Assembly: GCA_021323635.1 (NCBI GenBank)
Contig: JAJPKQ010000017.1
Coordinates: 186,001 to 250,000 of the forward strand
Reading direction: 5' to 3'
Origin: a bacterium
Lineage (GTDB): Bacteria; Actinomycetota; Thermoleophilia; Solirubrobacterales; Solirubrobacteraceae
DNA: 64,000 nucleotides
Shown: positions 9,722 through 30,847 of the stretch, one piece after another
How positions within the stretch are numbered: the first letter of the stretch is position 1
Layout of the letters: each line of letters starts with the position of its first letter
Position numbers and translations under genes: made by a program
Notes under the pieces: generated by a model
Seen by the model: only the letters and a program-made list of their open reading frames with translations
Told to the model about the DNA's origin: nothing
Databases searched by the model: none

Positions 9722-10972
9722 TCAGTCGGCGCGCGTAAGCACGCTCAGATCGGCATCCTCGTCGCCGAGCAGGGCGCGCTGCTCGGGGTCCAGCTGCCGG
9801 CCGTCGGCAAGCAGCGCACGAGCGACATCGATGTCCTCTGAGCGCCCGAGCGCAAGCGCTCCGGCAACGCGTCCCTCCTTCAGGTACCAATGCGAGAAGG
9901 CGCCTGACGCCATCTGCCCGCGCGTGAGCTCCTCGTCCCACTCGCGCGCAGGGCCGACGTACTCGAGCGAAGCCCAATCGGCGAGGTCGGAGAAGAAGTA
10001 CGGGACCACCTCGTAGTCGCATGCGCGCCCCACCATGTTTTCAGCTGCCACAAGCCCCTGGTTGTGCGCGACATCCCAGTGCTCGATGCGCATCGCGGCG
10101 CCGTGAAGCTTGGAGTCGTACTCGCAGATGTCGCCTGCGGCGTAGATGCCCGGAGCCGATGTCTCAAGCTTGCAGCTGCAGCGCACGCCGCCGCTGCGCC
10201 CGAGCGCGAGGCCCGCGCTGCGGGCCAGGCGAGCTTCCGGGACAGCGCCCGCCCCGATCACCACGAGCTCCGCTGCGATCTCCTTGCCCGAGGCTGTCTG
10301 AACTGCCTGCACCCGCCCCTCGCCGAGAAAGCCTGAGAGCTGCTCGGCGCGATGGAGCTCGACCCCGTGATCTGCCAGCAGCTGCGCGAAGTGGGCACCG
10401 ACACGAGCGCCGAAGGTGCGCTCGAAGGGCACCTGCTCGAGCATCACGATCGCGCAGCGCTTGCCGAGCGAGCTCAGCGTTGCCGCCACCTCGCAGCCGA
10501 TGTAGGAGCCGCCGATCATCACCACCCGCTCGGCCTGCTCGAGCTCCGCGCGGATCGCCTCGGAGTTGCCGAGCGTGCGCAGGTAGTGAATGCCGTCGAG
10601 ATCATCCCCCGCGACGGGCAGACGGCGCACGTTCGCACCGGGCGCCAGCAGCGCCTTGCCGAATCTGATCTGCTCGCGCGTTGAGAGCGAGGCGCATTTG
10701 GCAGCGGCGTCAAGCGCGCTCACCGAGGTGCGCGTCAGCAGCTCGATGCCCTGCTGCGCATACCACTCCGGCTGCTGGACGTAGGTGGCCTCACGCCCTT
10801 CCTTGCCCGCCAGGAAGGACTTGGAGCAGGGCGGGCGGTGGTAGGGCGGATCGCTCTCGCGGCCGACGATCGTGATCGACGCATCAGGCTCAAGCTCGCG
10901 CAGCCGCTCGGCAGCGCTTGCGCTCGCCAGCCCGCCGCCGATCAGGAGGTAGTCGACATGGCGCTCGGGCAT
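9722..10972 (-). CDS. FAD-dependent NAD(P)H oxidoreductase (ferredoxin/rubredoxin reductase type)
   Basis: 416 residues. Two nucleotide-binding folds: FAD site YLLIGGGLASASAAERL near the N-terminus and NAD(P)H site VVMIGGSYIGCEVAATL in the middle, plus the FAD pyrophosphate motif GIYAAGDICEY. The PPYHRPPCSKSFLAGK segment and the C-terminal domain place it with the rubredoxin/putidaredoxin reductase and apoptosis-inducing-factor-like flavoproteins that pass electrons from NAD(P)H to a small iron-sulfur protein. No ferredoxin or oxygenase gene is adjacent, so the acceptor is unknown. It is 39 bases beyond the end of amt on the same strand and may be cotranscribed with the ammonium genes. Confidence 0.88.
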   Translation of the reverse strand: MPERHVDYLLIGGGLASASAAERLRELEPDASITIVGRESDPPYHRPPCSKSFLAGKEGREATYVQQPEWYAQQGIELLTRTSVSALDAAAKCASLSTREQIRFGKALLAPGANVRRLPVAGDDLDGIHYLRTLGNSEAIRAELEQAERVVMIGGSYIGCEVAATLSSLGKRCAIVMLEQVPFERTFGARVGAHFAQLLADHGVELHRAEQLSGFLGEGRVQAVQTASGKEIAAELVVIGAGAVPEARLARSAGLALGRSGGVRCSCKLETSAPGIYAAGDICEYDSKLHGAAMRIEHWDVAHNQGLVAAENMVGRACDYEVVPYFFSDLADWASLEYVGPAREWDEELTRGQMASGAFSHWYLKEGRVAGALALGRSEDIDVARALLADGRQLDPEQRALLGDEDADLSVLTRAD

Positions 10973-13009: not shown

Positions 13010-13930
13010 ATGGTGTCACATCTGCGGATGCTGTGCATCTCACTCTGCTGCGCGGGAGGTCTGGCGCTCTCGTTGCCGCTTTCGGCAAGCGCTGCCTACC
13101 ATGTGCCCTACGGCAGCGAAGCGATCGGCGCGGGCCTGCTGGCAACGCTCTACTACCCAACCTACGTTCCGGTCACAGACAACGGCTGTCGGCCGAGCGC
13201 ACAGCACCCCTACCCGGTGGTCCTGGTCCAGACGACGCTTGCCAACGAGGGCTCAAACTGGGTGACGCTTGCGCCGCTGCTTGCCGACAACGGCTGTTGC
13301 GTCTATGCCTTCAACTATGGCGCAACCCAGCACTCACTCGGCGGTCGCATCGACGCGCTCGATCACATCGAGCGCCCGGCAGAAGAGCTCTCGACATTCC
13401 TCGATCGCATGCTTGCGCAAGCCGGAGCCAGGCAGATCGATCTGGTCGGCCACTCGCAGGGCGGGATGATGCCCAACCACTGCCTGGGGTTCCTCGGCGG
13501 CGCTCCCAAGGTTCACATGCTGATCGGGCTTGCGCCAAGCAACCACGGCACCATCTAGAAGGGCCTGGTCAACCTGCCGCACTCGCAGCCCTTCTCCCAG
13601 TACCTCGCCGACCTGGTCGAATACCTCGGCGCGCCGTCGCTGATCGAACAGGAGTACGACTCGCCTTTCATCGAGAAGCTGTTTGGCGTAGGCGAACCGC
13701 TTCTACCGGACGTCAAGTACGTTGTGATCGAGACCATTCACGACGAGGTCGTCACCCCGCACACCAATGCGCTCCTGCACGGTGGCAACGTCACAGACAT
13801 CATCGTGCAGGAACAGTGCCCGAACGAACCCGTCGGCCACATCGGCATGTTCGAGGACTCCCCTGCGCTACAGAGCGAGATGAACTGGCTCTCGTCGAGC
13901 CCCAGCCCCAAATTCCGGGCTCGTTGCTAA
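13010..13930 (+). pseudogene. Secreted lipase (LipA/EstA class 2 type) interrupted by an in-frame TAG
   Basis: Frame of 307 codons with strong ribosome binding site AAGGAGGA and a signal peptide (hydrophobic core at residues 8-25, likely cleavage after ASA). Alpha/beta-hydrolase fold: nucleophile motif GHSQGG with Ser149, followed by APSNHGT. Codon 183 (13556-13558) is TAG, yet the same frame continues without a break for 123 codons and contains the rest of the fold: the acid residue in TIHDEVVTPHTNA and the catalytic His in VGHIGMFED, ending TAA at 13928-13930. So a single base change separates the nucleophile from Asp and His. It is either a recent nonsense mutation or a sequence error. TAG is used as a normal stop by several neighbouring genes, so suppression is unlikely. 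Confidence 0.88.
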
Positions 13931-14045: not shown

Positions 14046-16712
14046 CTACTCGCGCTCAATATCGAGGCCGAGCTGACGGCGGACCTGCGCATCTTCCCCC
14101 TCGGCGTGCTGCGCAGCTGCTCGCATCTGTGCGCGCTGCGCAAGCGTCGGCGGCGGCCCGCCACCCGCTTCGCGCCGGCGTTCGCGCTGTAGCCACTCGG
14201 CCACCGAGCGCGGCGGCCCGCCGCGAGCTCGCTGCAGCTCTGCCTCGAAGCTGCGCTGCTCGCCCGGCGCAAGCACGCTCAGGGACTCGCGCAGCGCCTC
14301 CGCCTCCCCCGCGCGCGCATTGCGTCTGTCAAGCGCGCGATCGATGGTGAGGATCGCGCTGCGACGGCGCTGCGGGGAGAGACGCTCAAAATCCTCGACC
14401 GCGATGCCGGCGAGGGGCGCGAGGGCGGCGTAGTCGCGCCGCTGGGCCCCGCCGCTGCGCGCGTCGCCGAGGGCAGCCTGCGCATCGAGAAAGGCGCGGC
14501 GCTCCGCCAGCGCGCGGTGGTCATAGACCCTGCCCTCCAGGCGTCGGGAGCGCTCACCGGCGCCTGCGCGCGCCCGCGCATCGGCAAGCCGGCGCCGCTC
14601 CTGCTCGATCTCCGCGCTCACGCGCTGCCTGCGGCCGGCAAGCGAGAGCTGCCGTCGTCGCGCCCGCTCGGCACCCGCTGCGTCCCCCGCGTCCGCAAGC
14701 GCCTGCGCACGCTCGCCCGCGTGCGCGAGCGCCGCGTCGATGCGCTCCGCGCGCGTGTGCAAGGCGCCGATGCGCTCGTGCTGCGCAGGCTCCTCGCGCA
14801 GGACCTTCAGCGCGTCGCCATGCTCGCGCTCGAGCATCGCGCCGGCAAGCTCGCTGTGCTCCAGCTCAGCGCGCCGCTGCGCCTCGGCCGCAAAGCGCGA
14901 GCCGGCCTCCGGTGAGAGCCCCGGCGGCGCGATTGCCTCACGCAGCCGCCGCCCGCCACGCGCCACGCCGCGCGCAAGCGCCAAGGCACGCAGGCCCGCC
15001 GGGCGCCGGCCGCCCTCGGCCGCACCGGCAAAGGGCGCCTGTGCCCCCACGCGCAGCGCCGTGAGCAGCTCGCGGCGGCGCGCGAAGGCAACCCACCAGA
15101 CAGCCGAGATCAGCAGCCACTGCGCCCAGAAGCCAAGCGCAGATAGTCCGTAAAGGACGTGGTAGAGCAGCAGCACGATCCCCAACAGCAGCGAGAAGAG
15201 GAGCTTCGTCAATAGCGTGCAGAGGAGGCGGACCATGTAGCTGCGAAAGGTCGCCCTGCCGCTTGCGCCAAGAGCCGGCGCAAGCACCGCTGCGGGCAGC
15301 GCGAGCGTCATGATCAGCGCAAGCACCGCCGCGGTCAGCAGACGCAGCACGATCCAGCCCAGCAGCGCGAGCATGCCTGCCGCCCCGCACCAGATCAGCG
15401 CCAGCCCGATCAGACGCGCGGGCAGCGTGTGCTGGGTGCGAAACTGCGCCTGCGCCGCGGTCGGGCCACGGCAGGCGGTCGCGTCAAAAGAGCCCCCGCA
15501 GAGCACGTGCAAGAGCGAGCCTGCTTCGTTGATCGAGTTGCGCGCCGGCCCGTTGGCGGGCAGCGCGAGGAAGAGCGCGCCGTTGCTGTGCGCCCTTTCG
15601 AGGTTGGCCGCGATCGCCTCCAGCCGTTCATGCGCCGGACCGCTGCGGTAGCTCGATGCCGCGAGCGCGCGCGCCGAGCGCGCCAGCCTCCCCGCCGCCG
15701 CGACCAGCTGCCCGTCGAGCGCACGCTCGCTCTCGCACCAGCCAACAGCGCCAAACTCCAGGTAGCACCACGGCGAGCCGATCGCCGCCGAGAAGAGCGT
15801 TTCAACTGCTCCCGCAAGCGTCCCCACAGGATGTTCAGGGCTGCCGGAGGCAAAGGCGCCGAGCGTCCCGATCGCCGCGCGGTCTGAGAGCTTTGAGAGC
15901 TCGCCGATCGTAGCGGCGGGCGCGGCGATCATCGCCAGACCGAGGGCAATCTGCGCCAAAACCGCCGCGGCATCCCCGAGACTCTGGGCGATGCGCCGCC
16001 GAATCAGCCCGTGGTAGGCGAGCAGCGCGCCGGCGATCGCAAGGACCACCGCGAGCGCGGGCGTCGTGAACGTTCGCCTTGCCACCGCCAGGGTGTGGGC
16101 GACCCGCGCCAGCAGCGCACCGCTCAGCAGGCTGGTGCTGTAGCACCATTCCATCATCACCAGCAGGCCGCGCAGAAGCGCGACCAGCGCAAGCCATCCC
16201 CACTGCGCGACATCCTCGATCGCAGCGCTGAAGGTGTTGACGAATTCAAGCCCGCCCGTATTGATATGTACGTCAAACGCATAGTTTGAGAGCGGCACCT
16301 GAGCGCCGGTGAAGCCCGCCTCTGCGCAGTTGCGCCGTGCCGATTCAGAGAGCGCTGCGGGACGAGCACAGAACGGGCTGCGCAGACCGTTTTCGGTAAG
16401 GAAGTCGCCTTCGCCCGCAGCGATCATTGCCGCCTGCCCAGCCGTGCCTTCTTCTTCTTCTGCGCCGCCTGCTTCAGCCTGCGGCGAGGCTTCGCGCGGC
16501 GCGCCCTGCTGCGAGCGCCTTGCTCCCGCTGCTCTCTGGCCGCCCGTCCGCCTGCCGCCCCCCAGAGTGCCCGCCCCCCCGGTGGATGCGTGCCGGGCAG
16601 CGGACGCGCGGCGCAGGCTAGGCCCCTGGAGGGCGCCGGCGCCCGCGGGCAGCGCAAGCGCAGCCAGCGTCAGCGCGGAGATGAGCAGCGGCAGCGGAGC
16701 GCGCATCCTCAC
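14046..16712 (-). CDS. VirB6/TrbL-like polytopic membrane protein of a type IV secretion module
   Basis: 888 residues. A signal peptide (to about residue 27) is followed by a Gln/Ala/Glu-rich low-complexity stretch, then about six or more hydrophobic segments between residues 165 and 560, including two cysteine-containing loops likely outside the membrane. The final third (about 600-888) is soluble, packed with Arg, Ala and Glu in heptad-like patterns suggesting coiled coils. This arrangement is that of the inner-membrane channel protein of Gram-positive conjugation systems (TcpH/VirB6-like). It is the last gene of the cluster and overlaps the VirB4-like gene by 4 bases. The assignment rests on topology and context more than on motif identity. 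Confidence 0.72.
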   Translation of the reverse strand: MRMRAPLPLLISALTLAALALPAGAGALQGPSLRRASAARHASTGGAGTLGGGRRTGGQRAAGARRSQQGAPREASPQAEAGGAEEEEGTAGQAAMIAAGEGDFLTENGLRSPFCARPAALSESARRNCAEAGFTGAQVPLSNYAFDVHINTGGLEFVNTFSAAIEDVAQWGWLALVALLRGLLVMMEWCYSTSLLSGALLARVAHTLAVARRTFTTPALAVVLAIAGALLAYHGLIRRRIAQSLGDAAAVLAQIALGLAMIAAPAATIGELSKLSDRAAIGTLGAFASGSPEHPVGTLAGAVETLFSAAIGSPWCYLEFGAVGWCESERALDGQLVAAAGRLARSARALAASSYRSGPAHERLEAIAANLERAHSNGALFLALPANGPARNSINEAGSLLHVLCGGSFDATACRGPTAAQAQFRTQHTLPARLIGLALIWCGAAGMLALLGWIVLRLLTAAVLALIMTLALPAAVLAPALGASGRATFRSYMVRLLCTLLTKLLFSLLLGIVLLLYHVLYGLSALGFWAQWLLISAVWWVAFARRRELLTALRVGAQAPFAGAAEGGRRPAGLRALALARGVARGGRRLREAIAPPGLSPEAGSRFAAEAQRRAELEHSELAGAMLEREHGDALKVLREEPAQHERIGALHTRAERIDAALAHAGERAQALADAGDAAGAERARRRQLSLAGRRQRVSAEIEQERRRLADARARAGAGERSRRLEGRVYDHRALAERRAFLDAQAALGDARSGGAQRRDYAALAPLAGIAVEDFERLSPQRRRSAILTIDRALDRRNARAGEAEALRESLSVLAPGEQRSFEAELQRARGGPPRSVAEWLQRERRREAGGGPPPTLAQRAQMRAAAQHAEGEDAQVRRQLGLDIERE

Positions 16713-19183
16713 CGCTCTGGGGAGGGTGTCGAGCGCGCGCCGGGCGTTGTCGCAAGCGAGCGCAGCAGCCGCGGCACCAGCTCGATCTGGACGGCCTCGA
16801 TGCGGCCGCGATGATCGCGCAGCAGACAGCGGCCGGCGCTCATCTCAAGCAGCAGCCTGCGCAGCTGAGGCTCGCGGGCGTCGAGCCCAAGCAGGTGCAG
16901 AGCGCGCTCGGCCTCCTCCTCGGCGCGCAGCCCGAAGACGAAGGTAGCGCCGAGCAGGCCGGCCAGCGACTCTCGCTCGCCCAGCAGCGCGTCGGTCAGC
17001 AGCTGGGTGGAGATGATCGGCACCGCAAGCTCTGAGCGGCCCATCCGCTGCAGCGACATCAGCAGCGACCGTCCGGCCGGATCGCCGAGCAGTCGCCAGC
17101 CCTCATCGAAGGTGAAGACCTTCAGCCGCGAGCGCTCAGCGCTCATCAGCGCGCCCGCAAGCATCGCGATCAGCCGCAGCAGCTGCTCGCCGATGCGCTC
17201 GGACTGCGTGCGCTCCGAGCGGGCGATGCGCGGGTCAGGCGCGGGCAGGTCGCGGATGCGCAGATAGGTCACCTGCTTCTCACCGAAGGCGGGCGGGGGT
17301 TGATCGGCACGCGCAAAGGCAAGCTGGGTGAGCCCTCCCTCGGCATACACTGCAAGCGTCTCGGCGAGCGCTGCCTCTGCCTCATCGCCGCCCATCAAAG
17401 CGCTCAGCACCTCCGCACAGGTCGGGTTGGCGCAGTGTCGGAGCACGGCACCGACCGCGCGCACCAGCGCCGCCTCTGCAGCGGGCTCAAGCGTTGCCGG
17501 AAAGAGGTCGCGGAGGAACGAGACGGTCGCCTCCTGGCGCAGATCGGGCGGGGCGATGCGCAGCGGATCGAGCAGGCCACGCAGCGCCGGGTCGGCGCGC
17601 AGCGCGACGGTCTCGCAGTGCGGGGCGACCTCCTCGAGCAGGTGGAGGGCATGGTCGCCCTTGGGGTCGCAATCGACGATGCGGGCGCCCGCTAGGAAGG
17701 CCTCGTAGGCGAGCTTCTGGGCGAGCATCGTCTTGCCCGAGCCAAGCGCGCCGACGCAGAGGATCGCGGTGTTGCTGTCGCTCTCGGAGCCCTCACTGAG
17801 GTTGAACGTGACCGGCTCGGCGCCGCCGCTCAGGCAGTGGCCGAGATGAAAGCCATGGCGCGAGCCCACACGGGGCGCTCCTGTCGGCATCATCCCCGCA
17901 ACCTGCTCGCAGGTCAGCACGTCCTCATAGCCGCGGAGCGTGCGACCCCCTGCCGGCATGTGGAGGAGAAAGAGCGCAAGCTGCTCGCCGAAGGGCCGAA
18001 ACAGCCGTACCTCGCCGAAGGCGCGCCGGCAGTGCTCAACGCGCTCCTCAAGCTCCGCGGGCGAGCGCGCCGCCACGGCGATGGCGATGGTCACGCGCAG
18101 CAGCGGCGGGCGCGTGGCGGACTGCAGGTAGGAGAGCAGCTCGCGCGCCTGCTCGCTGCGCGCGTAGCCGCGGTCGCTTGCGCCCTGCTCGCCCTCTGCC
18201 TCCGCCGCAAGGATCTGGTCAGCATCCTGAATGCCGCGCCGCGCCAGGCGCAGGGCGAGGGTGTTGGGCAGATGGCGCGCGCTGAGGGCGATGTCGACGC
18301 CGAAGGGCAGGCTTTCGGACGCCCGCATCAGCAGCTCCGCACGGTGCGATGGAAAGCTCACGCGCTCCGGGAGCGCGCCGAGCACAAGCTGCGCCTGGTG
18401 GGAGACGCCAAGCTCCGATTCGATGCGCAGGGACTGCAGGCGATGCTCGACGATCCCCTCGCACCAGCGCACGACGTCGGCTTCGAGCGGAATCAGCGCC
18501 GCCTCGCCATTGCACTCGAACGCAAGCGCGCGCGGCTCATGGAGATCCTCGAGCAGCGGCTCGCCCAGCGCGCGGCAGAAGGCGCGGCGCACAAGCCACT
18601 GCAGCTCAAGCGCGCTTGTCGGGCGCACGCTCAGGTAGGCGGCAAGGCGGGCGTGCAGTCGGTCAGCGCGCCGGCGCAGATCCTCCAGCTCGGCCGCTCG
18701 TGGCACGCTGGGCGCAAGCGCGCTGCGCAGCGCCTCGAGGGGGTTGCGCTTGCGGCCGGCGGATTGCTCGCCGCGACGATCCGCGCCGAGCGCAGCGCCA
18801 AGCAGGCCTGAGACCCCCTGCTCGCCCTCGACAAGCCGGATCGCCAGAAATACCTCCGGGCGCCAGGGCAGGAGCGCTGAGAGCGATCGCGCCTGGCTTT
18901 CGAGATAGCGCTCGCCACACTCCCTGTGGCGTGCGCAGAGCAGCTGCTCGCCGGCGCGCACGTGGCGCTCACAGTCAAGGGCACGGCTGACGCGCAGCAG
19001 CTGAAAGTCGGCCTCGAGGGCCTCGATCGCGCCAAGCAGCGCCAGAAAGCGCTCGCGCTTGCCGGCCGCCGAGAGACAGCGGTAGGGGTGCGTGTCCACG
19101 GCAAACAGAGCCCAGCGCTCAGCGCGACCCCTGCCGAGCAGGATGTTCCCGTAGCTGAAGGCAAAGGGCAGCCTGGCGCTCAT
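16709..19183 (-). CDS. VirB4/TcpF-like conjugation ATPase
   Basis: 824 residues. P-loop GALGSGKT at 478-485, the following AGARIVDCDPKGDH block, Walker B KVFTFDEGWRLL around 688-699 and the LMSLQRMGRS region are classical for the VirB4/TraC family of type IV secretion ATPases. The N-terminal 450 residues form the family's structural half that docks on the inner-membrane complex. It powers assembly or substrate transport. Start overlaps the TcpE-like gene stop by 4 bases. The whole enzyme appears intact: no frameshift and all motifs present, so the module is probably functional. Confidence 0.9.
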   Translation of the reverse strand: MSARLPFAFSYGNILLGRGRAERWALFAVDTHPYRCLSAAGKRERFLALLGAIEALEADFQLLRVSRALDCERHVRAGEQLLCARHRECGERYLESQARSLSALLPWRPEVFLAIRLVEGEQGVSGLLGAALGADRRGEQSAGRKRNPLEALRSALAPSVPRAAELEDLRRRADRLHARLAAYLSVRPTSALELQWLVRRAFCRALGEPLLEDLHEPRALAFECNGEAALIPLEADVVRWCEGIVEHRLQSLRIESELGVSHQAQLVLGALPERVSFPSHRAELLMRASESLPFGVDIALSARHLPNTLALRLARRGIQDADQILAAEAEGEQGASDRGYARSEQARELLSYLQSATRPPLLRVTIAIAVAARSPAELEERVEHCRRAFGEVRLFRPFGEQLALFLLHMPAGGRTLRGYEDVLTCEQVAGMMPTGAPRVGSRHGFHLGHCLSGGAEPVTFNLSEGSESDSNTAILCVGALGSGKTMLAQKLAYEAFLAGARIVDCDPKGDHALHLLEEVAPHCETVALRADPALRGLLDPLRIAPPDLRQEATVSFLRDLFPATLEPAAEAALVRAVGAVLRHCANPTCAEVLSALMGGDEAEAALAETLAVYAEGGLTQLAFARADQPPPAFGEKQVTYLRIRDLPAPDPRIARSERTQSERIGEQLLRLIAMLAGALMSAERSRLKVFTFDEGWRLLGDPAGRSLLMSLQRMGRSELAVPIISTQLLTDALLGERESLAGLLGATFVFGLRAEEEAERALHLLGLDAREPQLRRLLLEMSAGRCLLRDHRGRIEAVQIELVPRLLRSLATTPGARSTPSPER

Positions 19184-19857
19184 CGCCCGCCGGGCTCGGC
19201 AACCACAAGCTGCGCGCCCTCACCGACCTCGATCACCTCCGGGGTGAGGCGCTCACCGCCGCCGTGCAGCGCGGCGGGGCGCTGTGCGCGACCCCACTGA
19301 CCACGTGTTGCGGGAAGCAGCAGCAGGCGGCGGTCGCCTCCGCGCGTGTGCAGTCGCGCCCCGACGGTCGGGCGTGCGTAGTGGTGAGCTTGACGGACCA
19401 GCGCGCGGCCGGGACCGCGATAGCGCAGGCGGCGCAGGCGCGGCTCCGATCCATCGCAGATGGCGACCAGCTCGCCTGGGCTCCAGCGGCGGCCGGGGGC
19501 GGGCGCGCTCGGCCGCGCAAGGCCGCAGAGCAGACGTGGGGAGACCACATGGCGCACCAACGCGAGCGCCGCGAGGTGAAATGTGCGCCCCTCGAGCCTG
19601 ATCACGCACAGCAGCGCGCCGCCGAGCGCAGGTGCCAGCAGCAGGCGCAAGTACCACGGCAGCAGCTGCAGCGGCCACCCCAGCGGTGAAATCCGCGTCA
19701 TCACCAGCGCCGCAACCGCAAGCGTGGCGGCGTAGAGGATCCCGCGCAGCGGCACACCGCCGGGGTTCAGGCGCAGCGTGTCGATCCGGTAGATGCGCCG
19801 CTCCAGGTCGAAGACGGAGCGGTAGGAGTGAATCACAATCTCCTCGCCGCCGGCCAT
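19180..19857 (-). CDS. TcpE-like conjugal transfer membrane protein
   Basis: 225 residues. Opens with an amphipathic segment SYRSVFDLERRIYRIDTLRL, then two membrane helices at about residues 37-55 and 67-85, then a soluble basic C-terminal domain. This N-terminal block followed by paired helices is typical of TcpE-family proteins (PF12648) of Tcp/Tn916-type conjugation modules, where TcpE sits next to the VirB4-like ATPase. Here it directly precedes that ATPase. The C-terminal 130 residues are longer than in the classical Clostridium TcpE and are rich in Arg and Gly. Confidence 0.75.
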   Translation of the reverse strand: MAGGEEIVIHSYRSVFDLERRIYRIDTLRLNPGGVPLRGILYAATLAVAALVMTRISPLGWPLQLLPWYLRLLLAPALGGALLCVIRLEGRTFHLAALALVRHVVSPRLLCGLARPSAPAPGRRWSPGELVAICDGSEPRLRRLRYRGPGRALVRQAHHYARPTVGARLHTRGGDRRLLLLPATRGQWGRAQRPAALHGGGERLTPEVIEVGEGAQLVVAEPGGR

Positions 19858-19861
19858 CGGC

Positions 19862-20281
19862 CTAGGCTCCGAAGAGCGAGCGAACCAGGTTTTCGATCAG
19901 CTTCACGCCTGCCGCCTGCGCAAAGAGGACAGCAACGACGCCGATCGCAAAGACCGCTACCGCCTCCTTGAAGTCGCGTCTGAAAGCAAGCACGACCGCA
20001 GCGATCGCAAAGCCCAGCGCGATCAGGCTCATCGCTACCTTGCGCCCCGTTTCGCCGGCCTTGCGCGCCGCACTTTCAAGCTGGTTGCCTTCACCACCTG
20101 CCGCGGCGGCGCTGCTCGCGCTCGCCGTGCGGCCTGCGGCGACCGCACCCGGCGCCGCCGTCGCGCTCGCAGGGGAGAGCGGAGTCGCGACTCCGAATAG
20201 ACAGAACGCTACGAGTATGCGCAGCACCCGGCGCCGCCAGACGCTCATCACCCTACAGCTGACACGTACACCTCTCATCAT
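19862..20281 (-). CDS. Small TcpD-like membrane protein
   Basis: 139 residues starting at ATG 20281 (or the next ATG at 20278), supported by AAAGGAG just upstream. A signal-like hydrophobic segment at about 19-42 is followed by a Ala/Gly-rich spacer and two more helices at about 83-101 and 108-124, ending in a short amphipathic tail. Proteins of this size and topology occur between the TcpC- and TcpE-like genes in Gram-positive conjugation clusters (TcpD position) and are VirB2/VirB3-like in placement. Sequence alone would not identify it; context does. Confidence 0.65.
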   Translation of the reverse strand: MMRGVRVSCRVMSVWRRRVLRILVAFCLFGVATPLSPASATAAPGAVAAGRTASASSAAAAGGEGNQLESAARKAGETGRKVAMSLIALGFAIAAVVLAFRRDFKEAVAVFAIGVVAVLFAQAAGVKLIENLVRSLFGA

Positions 20282-20304
20282 CGCTCCTTTCTTTTGGTTG
20301 CCGT

Positions 20305-21186
20305 CTATGGTTGATCCGGGCTCATCTGAATCGCCGCTATCTCCCAGCGCCCGCCGACATCGGCGACGTCAAGCTCATACGAGAGCGTGTAGCGGACGCC
20401 ATGCACATCGCGTGCCTGCACGAGCGCGATCACCGAGCCGCCGCCGGGAAGCCAGCGCAGCGACTGCAGCGACTGCAGCTGCAGGGGCTCAGGCGGCGTT
20501 GAGACGCGCGCGCCAGCGGTCAGATCCGCCTGCAGATCGAGCGTCGCGCCCGCCAGATAGTTGCGCAGCGCGCGGCGCACGACCGTCTGCAGCGCGCCAG
20601 CTTCGACGCTGGGAAAGGCTTCGCTCGGGTTGGCCCAGGGGGCGCTTTCCGGCGGGCCGACAAAGGCGGGATAGCCCGCCAGCGCCAGCGCCCCTGAGGG
20701 CTCGCGCAGAACGGCAACGCTCAGGTAGAGCGTCGGCCCCGCTGCCATCGCGCAGGCCAGGGTGTAGACGCGCTCGCCGGCGGGCCCGCTGCGTTCCTGG
20801 GCGACTTCGACGTCGAGCGCTTCCTGGGCGCCGGCGTCGGGAAGCTGGACGGCGGCGGCAGCCTGGTTGCCTTCGCTGCCGAGGTAGGGGGCGAGCGCTT
20901 CTGCGTAGGCCTGTGGGCTCTGCGCGTTGTAGGTCAGGTAGCGGCGGGCAAAGGCGACCGCGAAGGCTTCGGCCGCACGATCGGGAGCGGCGGCGGCCCG
21001 GTCGATGATCACCTTTGCCGGCGGCGGCGCAAAGAGCTGGCGCGCACTTGCCAGGATGCCGAGCGCCGCAACCGCCAGCAGCGCTGCGCGCGGCAGCTCG
21101 CGGCGCATGCGCAGCCGCCACAGCTGCTGCGGGCGCACGCTCACCGGCCGGATCACCTGATGCTCCTGGTGCGCGCCGGCAACCAA
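20305..21186 (-). CDS. TcpC-like (VirB8-like) conjugation channel protein
   Basis: 293 residues: a cytoplasmic basic N-terminus, one membrane helix at about residues 33-50 and a large outer domain. The outer part contains two similar halves (about 70-170 and 190-290), each of the NTF2/VirB8-type alpha+beta style, with AEAFAVAFARRYLTYN opening the first and the terminal RYTLSYELDVADVGGRWEI closing the second. TcpC in Gram-positive conjugation modules has exactly two such tandem domains. It starts six bases after the stop of the preceding gene. Role: scaffold of the transfer channel outside the membrane. Confidence 0.78.
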   Translation of the reverse strand: MVAGAHQEHQVIRPVSVRPQQLWRLRMRRELPRAALLAVAALGILASARQLFAPPPAKVIIDRAAAAPDRAAEAFAVAFARRYLTYNAQSPQAYAEALAPYLGSEGNQAAAAVQLPDAGAQEALDVEVAQERSGPAGERVYTLACAMAAGPTLYLSVAVLREPSGALALAGYPAFVGPPESAPWANPSEAFPSVEAGALQTVVRRALRNYLAGATLDLQADLTAGARVSTPPEPLQLQSLQSLRWLPGGGSVIALVQARDVHGVRYTLSYELDVADVGGRWEIAAIQMSPDQP

Positions 21187-21191
21187 CGCGA

Positions 21192-21905
21192 TCAGCCTTC
21201 AAAGCCAAACTCGGAGCCGGCTCCCCCCGCGCGTGCGCGCCGGCGCTGCAGCGGAGCTTGCGCGGGGCGCTGTGGCTGCGCAGGAGCGGCTTGGCTCACA
21301 TATGCGGCGGGGGCGCCCGTGCTCGCGCCGGCGCCGACAGGCGCCTCCTTGCGGCTGGAGCCCTCCGTCGATGCCAGAGCGAGCGCCGGTCCCTGAGGCG
21401 GTCTCATCGCGTGCGCCGAGGGATCGTGCATCAGCGCCTGCGGCCGATGCCAGCGCACCTGCGCGCGAGCTCCGGCGACGACGACAGTCAGGTGCTGCAG
21501 GCGAGGGGGCAAAGAGGGCGCGCGGCGCGGCGAGCGCGCCCGCACAGCGGCGATCGTGCCCCGCGATGCCGGGGGGCTTTGCGCAGCGCCGGCGCTGCGC
21601 GCGCCCGCGCGATCGGTGAGCGATCGCGACTCTGCGCGAAGCAGCGAGCCCGCAAGCACGCCAAGCGCAGCGGCCAAGAGCAACCGCTGGGTGCAGCAGA
21701 GCACCCTCGCAAGGCGCTTGGTCGCACGGCGCCCGAGCGGCGGCCTGCAGACCTGAGCGATCTCGGCGAGCGGGTCCACGGCGATCGCCGGCAGCGCCCC
21801 TGCCGCAAGCGGCGCGGCGGGCGCGCGCAGCGCATCGCCAAGCGCCCAGGCCGGGTAGACGGCAAAGTGCCCTCCGGCCTTGCTATGCCCGCGCAGCCTC
21901 GCCAC
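21192..21905 (-). CDS. Uncharacterised single-pass protein of the type IV secretion operon
   Basis: 237 residues with one hydrophobic segment at about 74-92. The N-terminal part is ordered (GDALRAPAAP, VDPLAEIAQVCRPP), the part outside the membrane is Ala/Pro/Arg/Gln-rich and probably disordered, and the chain ends with a distinct SEFGFEG. No family is recognised. It overlaps the sigma-like gene by 23 bases and stops six bases before the TcpC-like gene, so it belongs to the operon. Cysteines at the membrane boundary (VLCCTQ) could be lipidated or disulfide-linked. Confidence 0.6.
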   Translation of the reverse strand: MARLRGHSKAGGHFAVYPAWALGDALRAPAAPLAAGALPAIAVDPLAEIAQVCRPPLGRRATKRLARVLCCTQRLLLAAALGVLAGSLLRAESRSLTDRAGARSAGAAQSPPASRGTIAAVRARSPRRAPSLPPRLQHLTVVVAGARAQVRWHRPQALMHDPSAHAMRPPQGPALALASTEGSSRKEAPVGAGASTGAPAAYVSQAAPAQPQRPAQAPLQRRRARAGGAGSEFGFEG

Positions 21906-22590
21906 CCCTCTCCAGCTCGCCCGTCAACATGCGCAGCCTGATGCGAGCGCGCTGCAGCAGCTTGCGCTCCTTGTGGGTCGACCACCCGCGCAGCGCGCAG
22001 AGGGCTCGCGGATGCAGCTGAAGACCGACCCGACACGCGAGCGCAAAGCGCTGCTCCTCGCTGAGCTTGGGCGCCTGAATGACGACCTGCGCCAGGCGCA
22101 GTCGATTGATCACCAGCTCGTCGACCGCCGCGCTTGGGTCTGCGGCCTTCACATAGGCCTCCTGGCGGGCCGACCCCAGCGCCTGCTCAAGCGCCGCCGC
22201 CGCCGGGCTTCTGCCGGCGATCGCACGCCTGCGGTCGGCGATGCGCGAGCGCAGCTTCTGCTCGAGCGCGTTGGCGATGTGAGCACGGCTTGCAAACTGC
22301 CCGCGCTCGCGCATGCGCACAAGCAGCTCTAGCGCAGCCTGGCTGTAGCAGTCCTCGAGATCCTCTCGACGCAGGTGCGCGGCGTATGCGCGCAGCAGCG
22401 GCTCGCGCTTGGCGCGCAGCACCTCCGCGACCGCATCGAGCTGGCGGCTGCGCTGCGTGCCCTGCGCGGAGCCACGCGCCGTCAGCTGCAAGCCGCCGCC
22501 GCGGGCGCCGCGCTCACGTGCCGCCGCCTTGGCGCGCCTGACCGGCGCTCCTGGATCGCGGGCGCTTCCGCCTTGCGGTGGGGTAGACAT
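21883..22590 (-). CDS. Sigma factor-like protein heading the type IV secretion operon
   Basis: 235 residues from ATG at 22590. After a basic disordered N-terminus of about 50 residues, a region 2-like helix pair is seen (LRREDLEDCYSQAALELLV) and at the end a region 4-like helix-turn-helix (LSEEQRFALACRVGLQL ... LRGWSTHKERKLLQRARIRL). The two halves are separated by a normal linker. It could direct transcription of its own operon or act as a DNA-binding regulator. Its start is only six bases from the divergent YihY start, which is too little for both promoters, so one of the true starts may lie further in. It is the first gene of the seven-gene cluster. Confidence 0.65.
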   Translation of the reverse strand: MSTPPQGGSARDPGAPVRRAKAAARERGARGGGLQLTARGSAQGTQRSRQLDAVAEVLRAKREPLLRAYAAHLRREDLEDCYSQAALELLVRMRERGQFASRAHIANALEQKLRSRIADRRRAIAGRSPAAAALEQALGSARQEAYVKAADPSAAVDELVINRLRLAQVVIQAPKLSEEQRFALACRVGLQLHPRALCALRGWSTHKERKLLQRARIRLRMLTGELERGGEAARA

Positions 22591-22596
22591 GTCCTG

Positions 22597-23589
22597 ATGT
22601 CGAGCGCCAAGCGATCGAGACCCCCCTCCCACTTTGCGCAGCTGGTGCGCAGGCTCGACGGTGCCCAGCAACGCCACCGGCGCGTGGCATTTGCAGTTGC
22701 ACTGCTGCGCAAGTACGACGACGATCGCGGCGGCCAGCTGGCAGCGCTGATCGCATACTGGGGCTTCTTCTCGATCTTCCCGCTGCTGCTGACGTTCGTG
22801 ACGATCCTCGGCTTTGTCCTGCACGGCGACCCATCGGCACAACGCGCGGTCCTGCGCTCTGCGCTCTCCGAGTACCCGATCATCGGTCAGGAACTGGAGC
22901 GCAACATCCACTCCCTCAACGGCAGCCCGATCGCGCTTGCGATCGGGATCGGCGGGACGCTCTTTGCGGGGCTCGGTGTGACCGGGGCGATCCAGAACGC
23001 CTTCAGCGAGGTCTGGGCGGTGCCGCGCTACCGGCGACCCAACTTCATCGCCTGGCGCCTGCGCGGCCTGGCGCAGCTTGCGATCTTTGGGACGCTGCTG
23101 ATCGCATCAACGCTTGCCGCGGGCTATGTCACAGCGCAGGCGCCGAGCGGAGCGCTCGCAACCGCGCTTGCGGTGCTGATCGCCGTTGCGGCCAACATCG
23201 CGCTGTTCTTCCTCTCCTTTCGCGTCTACACGCCGGCGGAGATCCCCACGCGCGAGCTGTGGCCTGGGGTGATCGTGGGCGCGCTGGTCTGGCAGGCGCT
23301 TGAGCACGTAGGCGGTGTCTATGTCAGCGACGTCATCCGCCACGCCCGCGCGACATCCGGCCTCTTTGCGCTTGTCATCGGGCTGCTCGTATGGCTCTAT
23401 TTGGGTGGACGGGTCGCAGTCATCGCAACCGAGATCAATGCGGTGCGCTCCCGCAGGCTCTACCCGCGCAGCCTGCGCCGCGAGCAGCCGCTTGCGGCCG
23501 ACACGCGCGCGCTGAGCGAACGCGCGCGGGCCGAGCAGCTGACCGCGGGTGAGCGGATCGTGGTCGACCGCCACGATCCGGGTGGCTGA
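22597..23589 (+). CDS. YihY/BrkB family membrane protein
   Basis: 330 residues from ATG at 22597. About six membrane helices. Family motifs include ALIAYWGFFSIFPLLLTFVT in helix 1 and AIQNAFSEVWAVPRYRRPNF in the second loop, then the late KAxxAY-like region SGLFALVIGLLVWLYLGGRV. YihY proteins were first annotated as ribonuclease BN but are membrane proteins of unclear transport role. The basic/acidic C-terminal tail is cytoplasmic. The divergent sigma-like gene shares the promoter region. Confidence 0.9.
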   Translation: MSSAKRSRPPSHFAQLVRRLDGAQQRHRRVAFAVALLRKYDDDRGGQLAALIAYWGFFSIFPLLLTFVTILGFVLHGDPSAQRAVLRSALSEYPIIGQELERNIHSLNGSPIALAIGIGGTLFAGLGVTGAIQNAFSEVWAVPRYRRPNFIAWRLRGLAQLAIFGTLLIASTLAAGYVTAQAPSGALATALAVLIAVAANIALFFLSFRVYTPAEIPTRELWPGVIVGALVWQALEHVGGVYVSDVIRHARATSGLFALVIGLLVWLYLGGRVAVIATEINAVRSRRLYPRSLRREQPLAADTRALSERARAEQLTAGERIVVDRHDPGG

Positions 23590-23626: not shown

Positions 23627-24013
23627 TCACGGCGTCTGAAATCCCCTCTCGGCCGCGGCCCGGCGCAGTCGGCAGTCGCGCGTGGCGATCGCGTCGGCGC
23701 TGATCGTGATCGCGGTGTACAGCACGCAGCTGTCGGGCGTCAGAAAGCCGGCCTCCGCTCGCAGCGCTGCGACTGCGGGGGCGCTGCCCGCCAAGGGCGG
23801 CACGGAGCGAATCCCGAGATCGCTAGGCGCCGCTTGCATCTTCTCCCCTTTGCCAATGCGGGTCGGGCCGACCAGGATCCGCGCAAGCGTGAGGGCCCAG
23901 GCCGCGAGAGCGTCCGCGTCGAGAAGGCTTGCCCGCGCCGTGCGACTGTGCGCATCAGAGCTATCGAAGGAGGCGATCAGGACACTGGCGTCCAGGACAG
24001 TGAGCCCGGCCAT
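23627..24013 (-). CDS. PIN-domain toxin (VapC-like)
   Basis: 128 residues from ATG at 24013. PIN nuclease fold: first acidic residue in TVLDASVLIASFDSSDAH, later acidic cluster in the LTPDSCVLYTAITISADAIATRD segment. VapC toxins cleave tRNA or rRNA unless held by their antitoxin. The gene starts inside the last 37 bases of the upstream antitoxin gene. All PIN positions look intact, so this pair may be active, unlike its two neighbours. Confidence 0.82.
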   Translation of the reverse strand: MAGLTVLDASVLIASFDSSDAHSRTARASLLDADALAAWALTLARILVGPTRIGKGEKMQAAPSDLGIRSVPPLAGSAPAVAALRAEAGFLTPDSCVLYTAITISADAIATRDCRLRRAAAERGFQTP

Positions 24014-24270
24014 CCGCGACGCAGCTCCTCGAGGCAGCCCGCCGCATAGGCGCCGGTGAGCTCGCCGTGGTGGCGCTCGACCGCCCGACGATGCCGCGCT
24101 CCTCGCCGCTCGCGCCAGGAGTCGATCGCCTCGCTGCCGGCGCTCACGAGCCGCAACAGCAGGCGGCTGGGGCGCTTGGCATCCGCGGGCCACCGCTCGG
24201 CTGCGCGCTTGAGCGCCGCGGCGATCTCATCGCTTGCGGTGACCTGATCGCGACGGCGCTGAGTCGGCAT
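23977..24270 (-). CDS. Antitoxin partner of the PIN toxin
   Basis: 97 residues from ATG at 24270. Helical, basic, with TASDEIAAALKRAAERWP at the start and SWRERRGARHRRAVERHH in the middle; no classic ribbon-helix-helix or AbrB signature is obvious. Small size, position directly upstream and a 37-base overlap with the PIN gene identify it as the antitoxin. The C-terminal dozen residues are encoded inside the toxin start region. Confidence 0.65.
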   Translation of the reverse strand: MPTQRRRDQVTASDEIAAALKRAAERWPADAKRPSRLLLRLVSAGSEAIDSWRERRGARHRRAVERHHGELTGAYAAGCLEELRRGWPGSLSWTPVS

Positions 24271-24470
24271 GCAGACTAGTGTGCCACCTTGGTATGCAGT
24301 GCAGCAGCACCTGCAGGATCGACCAAGCCAGGCGGAGCGCTGATGGGTCTGACCGGGCGCGGATGATTGGCTCGCCGACACGGGTGCGTTTCGCGATCGC
24401 TGCTCTCGGCTACCTGTGCGGCGCCATCTTCGGCAGACCAAACACGTCATCAAAGTAAGGCGATACAAAG

Positions 24471-24755: not shown

Positions 24756-24761
24756 GGGCTC

Positions 24762-25345: not shown

Positions 25346-25387
25346 TGATTGGGCGCTGGCCTATCCCCTGCGCCAGGGCGCCGACGC

Positions 25388-27279: not shown

Positions 27280-29670
27280 ATGCCAGATTCCAACAACAGC
27301 GAGCAGCGCCCCTCCCCGATGCCCACCTCTGAATCGCGCGCTCTTGGCCCGGTGCGCTCAGAGCGCCCGCTTCTGCGCCTGATCCCGCTCGACGACACGG
27401 TCGTCTTCCCGGGCATGGGCGTAACGCTGCCGATCGAAGTCGGCAATGACGAGCGCGTCGTGCTCGTCCCTCGCCACGAGAGCGAGTTCCTCGAGGTTGG
27501 GACCGTGGCCGAGGTCGCAGACCGAGTGCGCCTGCCCGGCGGCGGGCGCGCCGTGCTGCTCTCCGGCCAGCACCGGGCGCTGATCGGGGCCGCCCGCACC
27601 GGCCCTGAAGGCGAGCTGCGCGTCGAAGTCGACGAGCGCCCGGACGAGGAGAACGCGCCCGCGCGGCCGGGCCGTGTCCGCCAGCTTGAACGCGAATACC
27701 GCGCTGTGGTCGAGGAGATCCTCGAGCTGCGCGGCGATGACGGTCGCATCGCCGCCTTCATCCGCGCGATCGTCGACCCCGGACCGCTGGCGGACTCCGC
27801 CGGCTACTCCCCCAACCTCTCCTATGAGCAGAAGGTCGAGCTCCTGCGCACGCTGCCGATTGATGAGCGCCTCGAGCTCGCGATCAAGCTCCAGCGCGAA
27901 AGTCTCGCGGAGCTGCAGCTGCGCAAGCGCATTCGCGAGGACGTACAGGAGGGCGCCGAGCGCCAGCAGCGCGAGTACTTCCTACGCAAGCAGATGGAGT
28001 CGATCCGCAAGGAGCTCGGCGAGGACGAGGCCTCGGTCGTCGATGAGTACCGCGAGAAGATCGCAGCCGCCAAGATGCCTGAGGAAGCCGAGAAGCAAGC
28101 GCTCAAGGAGCTTGCGCGCCTGGAGCGCATGGGCGAGCAGACCGGCGAGTCCTCGATGATCCGCACCTACCTGGACTGGCTGGTCGCGATCCCCTGGTCC
28201 AAGCGCTCCGAGGAGCACCTCGACCCCGTGGCAGCGCGCAACATCTTGGATGAAGACCACGCCGGGCTCGACGACGTCAAGAGCCGCATAACCGAGTACC
28301 TGGCCGTGCGCAAGCTGCGCACAGAACGCGGCATCGAGGCTGACCCGAAGTCCGGCGCGATCCTCACCCTCGTCGGACCTCCCGGCACCGGCAAGACCTC
28401 GATCGGGCGCTCGATCGCCCGCGCGCTCGGGCGCGAGTACGTTCGCATCTCGCTCGGCGGGGTGCGCGACGAGGCGGAGATCCGCGGCCACCGCCGCACC
28501 TACATCGGCGCGCTTCCCGGACGGCTTGTGCGGGCGCTGCGCGACGCCGGCACGATGAACCCCGTGATCGTCTTAGACGAGGTCGACAAGGTCGGCTCGG
28601 ACTGGCGTGGCGACCCGGCCGCGGCGCTGCTGGAGGTGCTTGACCCTGCACAGAACCACTCCTTCCGCGACCACTACCTCGATGTCGAGCTCGACCTCTC
28701 CCAGGTGCTCTTCATCGCTACCGCAAACGTCACCGACACGATCCCGACGCCGCTGCTCGACCGCATGGAGGTGATCCGCTTCGACGGCTACACCTCGGCG
28801 GAGAAGCTTGCGATTGCAAAGGGCTACCTGTGGCCGCGCCAGCGCGAGCGCAACGGGCTGCTCCCCGAGGAGGTCTCGATCGCCGATGAGGTGCTCAAGC
28901 TGATCATCGCCGATTACACCCGCGAGGCGGGTGTGCGCAACCTCGAGCGCGAGCTTGGCTCGGTGCTGCGCAAGACCGCCACCAAGATCGCCGAGGGCGA
29001 GCTGCAGCCGCCGGTGGAGATCGACATCGAGCGCGTCCGCGATGCGCTCGGTCGCCAGCGCTACTTCCAGGAGTCAGCCGTGCGCACCGCCGTGCCGGGC
29101 GTCGCAACCGGCCTTTCGGTCACCGGGGCCGGCGGCGAGGTGCTGTTCATCGAGGCAACGGCGATGCGGCGCGAGCCGGGCTCCGGCGAGGACCTGGTGC
29201 TGACCGGGCAGCTCGGCGACGTGATGAAGGAGTCCGCGCGCATCGCCCTCTCCTACATCCGCGCCCACGGCGAGGAGCTGGGCATCCCCGAGAGCGCCTT
29301 CGAGGGTCGCCAGTTCCACCTGCACGTTCCCGCCGGCGCGATCCCCAAGGACGGCCCAAGTGCAGGGGTGACGATGGTCACCGCACTTGCCTCGCTGCTC
29401 TCCGGCCGGTCGGTCAAGCACACCGTCGGGATGACCGGTGAGGTCACCCTGCAGGGGCGCGTGCTGCCGATCGGCGGACTCAAGCAGAAGGTGCTGGCAG
29501 CGCACGCCGCTGGCCTCACAGACGTGATCCTGCCCGAGCGCAACCGCCCCGATCTCGATGAGATCCCTGAGGAAGTCAGGGAGCAGCTCTCCTTCCACCC
29601 TGTCATGGACGTGCGCGAAGTGCTCGAGATCGCGCTCGAGCCTGCACATGAAGTCACCGTGGCGAAGTAG
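27280..29670 (+). CDS. lon: ATP-dependent Lon protease
   Basis: 796 residues from ATG 27280 (GGAAAG about ten bases upstream; a GTG at 27271 would add three). Degrades misfolded and regulatory proteins in the cytoplasm. The N-terminal LON substrate domain (RLIPLDDTVVFPGMGVTLPI), AAA+ P-loop GPPGTGKT at 366-373, and protease domain with catalytic Ser694 in GPSAGVTM and Lys in the GGLKQKVLAAH segment are all present; length is normal. A palindrome lies across its promoter. It is followed within ten bases by an HxlR regulator, so the two are likely cotranscribed. Confidence 0.96.
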   Translation: MPDSNNSEQRPSPMPTSESRALGPVRSERPLLRLIPLDDTVVFPGMGVTLPIEVGNDERVVLVPRHESEFLEVGTVAEVADRVRLPGGGRAVLLSGQHRALIGAARTGPEGELRVEVDERPDEENAPARPGRVRQLEREYRAVVEEILELRGDDGRIAAFIRAIVDPGPLADSAGYSPNLSYEQKVELLRTLPIDERLELAIKLQRESLAELQLRKRIREDVQEGAERQQREYFLRKQMESIRKELGEDEASVVDEYREKIAAAKMPEEAEKQALKELARLERMGEQTGESSMIRTYLDWLVAIPWSKRSEEHLDPVAARNILDEDHAGLDDVKSRITEYLAVRKLRTERGIEADPKSGAILTLVGPPGTGKTSIGRSIARALGREYVRISLGGVRDEAEIRGHRRTYIGALPGRLVRALRDAGTMNPVIVLDEVDKVGSDWRGDPAAALLEVLDPAQNHSFRDHYLDVELDLSQVLFIATANVTDTIPTPLLDRMEVIRFDGYTSAEKLAIAKGYLWPRQRERNGLLPEEVSIADEVLKLIIADYTREAGVRNLERELGSVLRKTATKIAEGELQPPVEIDIERVRDALGRQRYFQESAVRTAVPGVATGLSVTGAGGEVLFIEATAMRREPGSGEDLVLTGQLGDVMKESARIALSYIRAHGEELGIPESAFEGRQFHLHVPAGAIPKDGPSAGVTMVTALASLLSGRSVKHTVGMTGEVTLQGRVLPIGGLKQKVLAAHAAGLTDVILPERNRPDLDEIPEEVREQLSFHPVMDVREVLEIALEPAHEVTVAK

Positions 29671-30798: not shown

Positions 30799-30847
30799 CC
30801 TCTCCTTGCTTAGTGACGAGCGCCAGCGGTTCCAGCGTAGCGAGACG

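What the first reader, a model, noticed from the sequence alone, without database searches (positions are those of the whole stretch)
14046..22590. Complete-looking Tcp-type secretion operon with no relaxase, headed by a sigma-like gene
Seven minus-strand genes with 4-23 base overlaps or tiny gaps encode VirB6-like, VirB4-like, TcpE-, TcpD-, TcpC-like proteins, an unknown single-pass protein with a terminal SEFGFEG, and a sigma-like protein first. No coupling ATPase, relaxase, NlpC hydrolase or integrase is in the window. This fits a domesticated or stand-alone channel, perhaps for protein or DNA export or uptake, with its own regulator. The VirB4-like ATPase has intact Walker motifs. Seen: gene order and motifs. 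Inferred: domestication.
Basis: partly seen in the sequence, partly recalled or inferred. Interest (0 to 1): 0.75.

Follow-up and report, generated by a model that had tools for sequence, protein, structure and literature searches.

The report
Domesticated two-locus DNA-transfer-type channel
An uncultured group of soil bacteria appears to have turned a mobile element's DNA-transfer machine into a permanent part of its own chromosome, with the channel (and its own regulator) at one site and the DNA-handling motors at another, which may mean these bacteria move DNA as a built-in trait.

Summary
In detail: seven minus-strand genes at 14046-22590 encode CD3337/VirB6-like, TcpF/VirB4, TcpE-like, TcpD-like, TcpC, a single-pass protein ending EFGFE, and a divergent ECF-sigma-like protein. 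No relaxase, coupling ATPase or integrase was recognised beside it. 'Stand-alone channel' does not hold. The same genome carries a second locus, on another contig, with two TraD-like coupling ATPases (one fused to a Replication-relaxation domain), an SSB, a CHAP hydrolase and a conserved DNA-binding-like protein. In a 24-genome genus of uncultured Solirubrobacteraceae (named from MAG titles as the palsa_744 group), both loci sit at fixed, unlinked sites: locus 1 between brkB/lon and a ferredoxin reductase, locus 2 beside hrcA-dnaJ. Most genomes have both. The genes form one clade, evolve with housekeeping neighbours, keep their Walker motifs and are under purifying selection; ICE copies in the same genomes are separate lineages. 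Two genomes show deletion scars. This is therefore a domesticated, vertically inherited Tcp/MPF-FATA-type T4SS split over two loci. Most likely it moves DNA; the genus also lacks detectable ComEC. Substrate and direction are untested. Domestication as such is known (Patescibacteria, archaeal Ced). I know of no report of this split, sigma-headed actinobacterial version.

The parts
14046..16712 (-). VirB6-like polytopic membrane channel protein (CD3337/EF1877 family, 888 aa)
   Evidence: NCBIfam NF046089 2.5e-10; orthologs 36-48% identical at the same place in the genus
16709..19183 (-). VirB4/TcpF-like ATPase; Walker A about 17729-17752, Walker B DE about 17102-17107
   Evidence: AAA_10 8e-44, TcpF 2.5e-41; 57-62% identical orthologs in the genus (19 of 24 genomes counting this one); motifs conserved in orthologs
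19180..19857 (-). TcpE-like membrane protein
   Evidence: PF12648 0.0026, sub-threshold; syntenic orthologs 41-53%
19862..20281 (-). TcpD-like / VirB2-like small hydrophobic protein with N-terminal hydrophobic segment
   Evidence: weak TrbC/VirB2 hit 0.017; syntenic orthologs 45-79%
20305..21186 (-). TcpC (VirB8-like) protein
   Evidence: PF12642 4.8e-7, above cut-off; syntenic orthologs 43-59%
21192..21905 (-). orf6: single-pass membrane protein, Pro/Ala-rich tail, C-terminal EFGFE motif (codons at 21192-21212)
   Evidence: no family; same motif at the end of the positional ortholog in many genus genomes
21883..22590 (-). divergent ECF-sigma-like regulator heading the operon
   Evidence: ortholog profile vs PDB: CnrH 0.0043, ECF sigma 0.0097; AlphaFold model matches sigma factors; syntenic orthologs 44-54%
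22597..23589 (+). conserved flank: BrkB/YihY-family gene, divergent (not part of the machine)
   Evidence: PF03631 4.2e-35; same neighbour in the genus
27280..29670 (+). conserved flank: Lon protease, followed by HxlR regulator 29737-30021
   Evidence: same neighbour in the genus
9722..10972 (-). conserved flank on the other side: ferredoxin-reductase-like FAD protein
   Evidence: PF07992 7e-56 and Reductase_C; same neighbour after virB6 (or SLT) in the genus

Best explanation
This is the channel half of a domesticated, vertically inherited Tcp/MPF-FATA-type type IV secretion system split over two fixed chromosomal loci. Locus 1 (window) makes the envelope channel (VirB6, TcpC/VirB8, TcpD, TcpE), its VirB4 motor, in many sister species an SLT peptidoglycan hydrolase, and an ECF-like sigma factor with a membrane partner (orf6) that probably controls it. 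Locus 2 (contig C32, beside hrcA-dnaJ) makes the substrate side: a TraD/TrwB-like coupling ATPase, a second TcpA-like ATPase fused to a Replication-relaxation domain, an SSB, a DNA-binding-like protein and here a CHAP hydrolase. Proposed working: the sigma factor switches the channel on; locus-2 ATPases bring DNA, kept single-stranded by SSB, to the VirB4/VirB6 channel; the hydrolase opens the wall. Shown: genes, motifs, two-locus synteny, vertical inheritance, purifying selection. Inferred: assembly into one machine, DNA as substrate, regulation by the sigma factor. Direction (export to siblings or import) is unknown; export of chromosomal ssDNA is my slight preference because TraD-type couplers normally export.
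For: Families: (TraD-like 4.9e-24 and 3.7e-30 for the 586-aa coupler and its ortholog; 1.6e-8 for the 1233-aa ATPase; SSB 7e-30; CHAP 1.6e-11; Replic_Relax 1.9e-9). Profile comparison: about 655 columns of the 1233-aa protein align with the TcpA-like protein of ICEs (E 1.4e-6) and its C-terminus with the adjacent ICE Replic_Relax protein (1.2e-5). Locus 1 synteny; locus 2 synteny, also in sister genera g13 and g16. Distribution in 24 genus genomes: VirB4 in 19, coupler in 20, 1233-aa type in about 19. Tree: 20 chromosomal VirB4s (own, 18 genus members, one sister genus) form one clade (100*), ICE copies of the same genomes lie elsewhere. Distances: VirB4 vs lon r=0.85, VirB4 vs the 1233-aa ATPase r=0.95; dN/dS 0.09-0.21 for VirB4, 0.12-0.19 for SSB. 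One relative (L049) holds coupler, SSB, ECF sigma, Tcp channel and SLT in one cluster. No ComEC in 24 of 24 genomes, while 10 of 14 controls ring.
Against: No experiment. All genus genomes are draft MAGs. Co-occurrence of the loci is not strict: G305 has locus 1 only; G307 has locus 2 but only sig+orf6 of locus 1; G121 (sister genus) has locus 2 without VirB4; the Fisher test is p=0.008 on 24 genomes but 0.18 without the two fragmentary ones. No nicking enzyme is identified at either locus, so how ssDNA would arise is unexplained. Physical interaction between the products of the two loci is not shown. dS is high for many pairs. The coupler's Walker B reads DD instead of DE in this subclade.
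Confidence: 0.62

Rival explanations
1. A relaxase-less T4SS repurposed to deliver proteins (toxins or signals) to neighbouring bacteria or eukaryotes, as proposed for many MOBless T4SSs and for Patescibacteria; the locus-2 ATPases act as effector couplers.
For: No relaxase at either locus; chromosomal, vertical. MOBless T4SSs are often protein secretion systems (PMC3158045); the Patescibacterial chromosomal MPF-FATA T4SS mostly lacks a relaxase (PMC12102498).
Against: SSB and a Replication-relaxation domain are co-conserved with the couplers at locus 2, and SSB travels with Tcp clusters in relatives (L048, L049, L050). No effector or immunity genes were recognised at either locus.
Confidence: 0.2
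2. A DNA importer that replaces ComEC-type transformation, analogous to the archaeal Ced system.
For: ComEC absent in 24/24 genomes; Ced is a domesticated conjugation machine that imports DNA (PMC9905601); weak CedB/CedD hits of the sister-species coupler (1.8e-5, 3.9e-4); SSB would protect incoming ssDNA.
Against: The same coupler matches TraD far better (3.7e-30). Whether ComEC is missing from the whole class was not tested. No DNA receptor identified.
Confidence: 0.2
3. A resident channel used in trans by mobilizable elements: MobF relaxase + TraG elements lacking their own channel borrow the chromosomal Tcp system.
For: Own contig C44 has MobF (7e-67) and a T4SS-DNA_transf coupler (9e-30); this genome has a single VirB4 hit, the window's; MobF hits are multiple and patchy in the genus; actinobacteria were noted to have many MOB but few T4SS (PMC3158045).
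Against: MobF undetected in nine genomes, several with intact loci (G214, G306, G311); does not explain why the host keeps the channel. Could be a side use.
Confidence: 0.15
4. A decaying ICE remnant on its way out.
For: G288 keeps only an SLT remnant at the site, G307 only sig+orf6; no integrase, att repeat or relaxase recognised.
Against: Open reading frames, Walker motifs and gene order kept across about 20 species at 57-62% VirB4 identity; dN/dS about 0.1-0.2 for VirB4.
Confidence: 0.06

Closest known systems
Tcp/MPF-FATA conjugation systems (pCW3/Tn916-type) and the ICE-like clusters of Solirubrobacterales (L051-L054, L099-L103)
   Same: TcpC, TcpD-like, TcpE, VirB4/TcpF, CD3337/VirB6, hydrolase, TcpA-like ATPase; in the ICE-like clusters a Replic_Relax gene lies next to the TcpA-like gene.
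   Different: Here split over two chromosomal sites, vertical, TcpA-like part fused to Replic_Relax, extra TraD-like coupler and SSB, ECF-like sigma at the head; no relaxase or integrase recognised.
Patescibacterial chromosomal T4SS (PMC12102498)
   Same: Chromosomal MPF-FATA system, mostly without relaxase; coupling genes often far from virB4.
   Different: Different host phylum; the paper's main text does not mention SSB or sigma genes. Tree relation not tested.
Archaeal Ced DNA-import system (PMC9905601)
   Same: Domesticated conjugation machinery on the chromosome with a VirB4/HerA-like ATPase.
   Different: Ced has four proteins, with no SSB/coupler locus described there, and is archaeal; direction here unknown.
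Gonococcal genetic island T4SS with SsbB (PMC3334931)
   Same: T4SS plus SSB and TraD; secretes ssDNA.
   Different: Diderm, a genetic island with TraI, ParA and ParB; SsbB had no effect on secretion or uptake there.
ECF sigma / anti-sigma pairs
   Same: Two-domain sigma-like fold; the next gene encodes a single-pass membrane protein.
   Different: Very divergent; no anti-sigma domain recognised in orf6.

Membership tests
Tcp / MPF-FATA type IV secretion system | VirB4/TcpF ATPase with Walker motifs | tested here: met
   TcpF 2.5e-41; Walker A/B conserved
Tcp / MPF-FATA type IV secretion system | TcpC (VirB8-like) and VirB6-like channel proteins | tested here: met
   PF12642 4.8e-7 above cut-off; NF046089 2.5e-10 below its cut-off
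Tcp / MPF-FATA type IV secretion system | TcpE and TcpD-like proteins | tested here: inconclusive
   TcpE 0.0026 sub-threshold; TcpD by position and hydrophobic segments only
Tcp / MPF-FATA type IV secretion system | Coupling ATPase (TcpA/VirD4) | tested here: met
   At a second locus: TraD-like 4.9e-24; TcpA-like by profile 1.4e-6
Tcp / MPF-FATA type IV secretion system | Cell-wall hydrolase | tested here: met
   CHAP at locus 2 in G000 and G315; SLT after virB6 in many sisters
Integrative and conjugative element | Relaxase linked to the T4SS | tested here: not met
   None recognised at either locus; MobF only on contig C44. Other MOB classes were not searched genome-wide; Replic_Relax function unknown
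Integrative and conjugative element | Integrase / attachment site, tRNA target | tested here: not met
   No integrase recognised among neighbours, only tRNA 38 kb away, no convincing flanking repeats
Integrative and conjugative element | Horizontal distribution | tested here: not met
   Fixed site, monophyly, congruence with lon
Domesticated chromosomal T4SS | Vertical inheritance at a fixed site under purifying selection | tested here: met
Domesticated chromosomal T4SS | Host function demonstrated | not testable with these tools
   No cultured member among the near-relative records found (MAGs)
ECF sigma factor | Sigma region 2 and region 4 domains | tested here: met
   Sigma4 domain Z about 9 at 0.7-2.2 A; sigma2-sigma4 topology; profile hits ECF sigmas. 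Sequence hits individually weak
GGI-type ssDNA secretion system | T4SS with TraI relaxase and ParA/ParB | tested here: not met
   TcpF-type VirB4; no relaxase recognised at either locus; ParA/ParB not specifically searched
Ced DNA importer | CedA/CedA1 channel and pilin | not tested
   Only weak CedB/CedD hits of the coupler

The most novel reading that the evidence does not exclude
A monoderm bacterial genus without detectable ComEC uses a domesticated, sigma-controlled, two-locus conjugation machine as its own chromosomal DNA-exchange system (export to siblings or Ced-like import), with a TcpA-Replication-relaxation fusion standing in for the relaxase.
Probability: 0.3. Interest if true: 0.85.

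Novelty: new variant of a known kind. Interest (0 to 1): 0.62.

Why it matters
Conjugation machines normally belong to mobile elements. Here one seems to have been fixed in a chromosome for a whole genus and its sister genera, split into a channel locus and a DNA-handling locus that evolve together, while ICEs of the same type still circulate in the same species. That makes the question 'what is a conjugation machine for when the cell owns it' testable in Gram-positive bacteria, next to archaeal Ced and Patescibacteria. The TcpA-Replication-relaxation fusion and the adjacent SSB also give clues to how such systems may process DNA without a known relaxase.

Tried and rejected
Recent ICE: rejected by synteny, tree and the absence of recognised ICE genes. 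Chance ORFs for orf6 and sigma: rejected by syntenic orthologs; orf6 has little overall blast similarity and was recognised by position and its end motifs. EFGFE as a general sorting tag: not supported in the genus, where the motif before a stop occurs about once per genome, mostly in orf6. MobF relaxase as the system's own relaxase: not supported, patchy and multi-copy. ICE TcpA (868 aa) and the 1233-aa protein looked unrelated by blastp but are related by profile. The 240-330 aa gene beside the coupler (38_230) as a Replic_Relax homolog: not supported (prob 2.5). The locus-2 unknown (207-347 aa) gave no family and no significant Foldseek hit; a C-terminal lambda-repressor/Xre-like HTH is only suggested (Z 6.7). 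PDB sequence searches with the TcpC and 1233-aa profiles found nothing. Promoter scan empty. Composition unremarkable: locus 70-74% GC against 65-70% around it. A paper search for Thermoleophilia with type IV secretion found none.
Full report
1. What is there. The window holds seven tightly packed minus-strand genes at 14046-22590 (spacings -4, -4, +4, +23, +5, -23). Products in transcription order: a sigma-like protein, orf6 (single pass, ending SEFGFEG), TcpC, a TcpD-like protein, a TcpE-like protein, a VirB4/TcpF ATPase and a CD3337/VirB6-like channel protein. VirB4 keeps its Walker motifs. The sigma-like protein is too divergent for single-sequence HMMs (0.037). With 12 orthologs its profile hits ECF sigma structures first, and the AlphaFold model (mean pLDDT 79.6) finds sigma factors or sigma-containing transcription complexes throughout the Foldseek list, with the sigma4 domain superposing at 0.7-2.2 A.

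2. Where it sits. The window is contig C33:186001-250000 of a 2.64 Mb draft genome, 97.5% complete. The named records of near relatives are MAGs, mostly titled Solirubrobacterales or Solirubrobacteraceae, one titled palsa_744; I infer the GTDB genus Palsa-744 from that title. In related genomes locus 1 sits at one place: HxlR - lon - brkB diverging from sig - orf6 - tcpC - tcpD - tcpE - virB4 - virB6 - (SLT hydrolase) - ferredoxin reductase. G000, G316 and G186 lack the SLT gene there. In G369 of sister genus g13 the channel part lies near cobO, which is also near locus 1 in G000.

3. The missing half. A search of the own genome for TraG-D_C found two hits outside the window. One, on C44, is a T4SS-DNA_transf coupler beside a MobF relaxase, probably a separate element. 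The other, on C32, is a 586-aa TraD/TrwB-like coupler beside an SSB gene. Upstream in the same direction lie a 207-aa protein with orthologs up to 347 aa, a CHAP hydrolase and a 1233-aa protein. The latter's N-terminal part is a TraD/TcpA-like ATPase and its C-terminus is a Replication-relaxation domain. In ICE-like clusters of the order these two are separate, overlapping genes (L051). Locus 2 is also syntenic: next to two MaoC genes, hrcA and dnaJ in nearly all genus genomes with the contig, and in sister genera g13 and g16.

4. Domesticated, not mobile. In the 24-genome genus search VirB4 of the chromosomal type (57-62%) is in 19 genomes, this one included, the coupler in 20 and the 1233-aa type in about 19. 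Twenty chromosomal VirB4s form one clade with full support, while the extra ICE-type copies in G186, G151 and G288 fall elsewhere. Pairwise distances track housekeeping neighbours: VirB4 vs lon r=0.85 (0.66 without the divergent own genome), coupler vs hrcA r=0.84, VirB4 vs the 1233-aa ATPase r=0.95; VirB4 vs dnaJ is weaker without the own genome (0.41, p=0.054). dN/dS is 0.09-0.21 for VirB4 and 0.12-0.19 for SSB. Losses exist and look like deletions in place: G288 keeps only an SLT remnant between brkB and the reductase, G307 only sig and orf6. No tRNA, integrase or flanking repeat suggests an element.

5. One machine? Co-occurrence of the two loci is strong but not strict: G305 has locus 1 only, G307 essentially locus 2 only, and the sister-genus genome G121 has locus 2 without VirB4. 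The best link is L049, a related cluster in which a coupler (33% to ours), an SSB, an ECF sigma-zinc-finger-membrane protein, the Tcp channel genes and an SLT hydrolase lie side by side. SSB genes also lie beside the Tcp clusters of L048 and L050.

6. How it may work. Inference: the ECF-like sigma, perhaps with the membrane protein orf6, switches on the channel operon; a hydrolase (SLT or CHAP) opens the wall; the TraD-like coupler and the TcpA-Replic_Relax ATPase feed DNA, bound by SSB, to the VirB4/VirB6/TcpC channel. DNA rather than protein is preferred because SSB and the Replic_Relax domain are co-conserved with the couplers. ComEC was not found in any of 24 genomes while 10 of 14 controls rang, so these bacteria seem to lack the usual uptake channel; whether that holds for the whole class is untested. 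No nicking enzyme was identified, which is the main hole.

7. Compared with the known. Chromosomal relaxase-less T4SSs are known as MOBless systems (PMC3158045), in Patescibacteria (PMC12102498) and as archaeal Ced (PMC9905601). An SSB with a DNA-secreting T4SS is known from the gonococcal island (PMC3334931), where it had no measurable effect on secretion or uptake. The differences here are the fixed split into two loci, the ATPase-Replic_Relax fusion, the ECF-like sigma head and the setting in Solirubrobacteraceae. I rate it a new variant of a known kind.

8. Limits. Draft MAGs throughout; gene calls by a home-made caller checked by homology; E-values of short families weak; 12 of 12 genome searches used, so other relaxase classes and ComEC outside the genus were not searched; no experiment.

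Noticed in passing
L099, L101, L103 (ICE copies in G288, G151, G186) and hits in G254 C6, G220 C75, G272 C83: VirB4 is encoded by two consecutive ORFs: at residue about 411 in three ICE copies, and at about 630, between Walker A and Walker B, in three order-level relatives. Recurrent positions suggest split genes or programmed frameshifting rather than errors.
   Followed up: no
window 21192-21212; L048, L050, L045, L046, L049, L119: C-terminal EFGFE/EFGP-like motifs recur on two protein kinds in Solirubrobacterales: orf6 (before tcpC) and ECF sigma proteins with a membrane segment and Ser/Gly-rich tail (for example L119 ends SEFGFE; L049 has EFGFEG inside). A common partner is possible.
   Followed up: partly
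G000 contig C44 (L035, L036): 23 kb contig with MobF relaxase and TraG-type coupler but no VirB4, next to paralogs (38-63%) of window genes 30064-35589 in the same order: a duplicated segment, a mobilizable element, or a contaminating contig of a relative.
   Followed up: partly
24 genomes of the genus: ComEC (PF03772) not detected in any genome of the genus although 10 of 14 control genomes ring.
   Followed up: partly
L045, L054, L101, L099 (also L046, L048, L050 by gene order): Upstream of many Tcp clusters of the order: ECF sigma with membrane tail, then a large secreted-looking protein of 540-740 aa (Ig-like domains in L045) and often a short secreted-looking protein; possible surface partner of the channel.
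   Followed up: partly
window 13010-13930: Lipase/alpha-beta hydrolase gene apparently broken into two ORFs between glnB/amtB and virB6; a homolog lies between brkB and lon in L183 (G308).
   Followed up: no
window 23627-26739: A PIN-domain toxin-like gene and an IrrE/M78 peptidase-like gene beside a DUF4411 gene lie between brkB and lon; toxin-antitoxin-like genes seem to occur at this spot in L091 and L171 too.
   Followed up: no
G000 C32 54534-55319 (L037 18534-19319): A DAPG-hydrolase-family gene (PF18089, 1.9e-62) lies in locus 2 between the unknown protein and the coupler; it was not noticed there in the other genomes.
   Followed up: no
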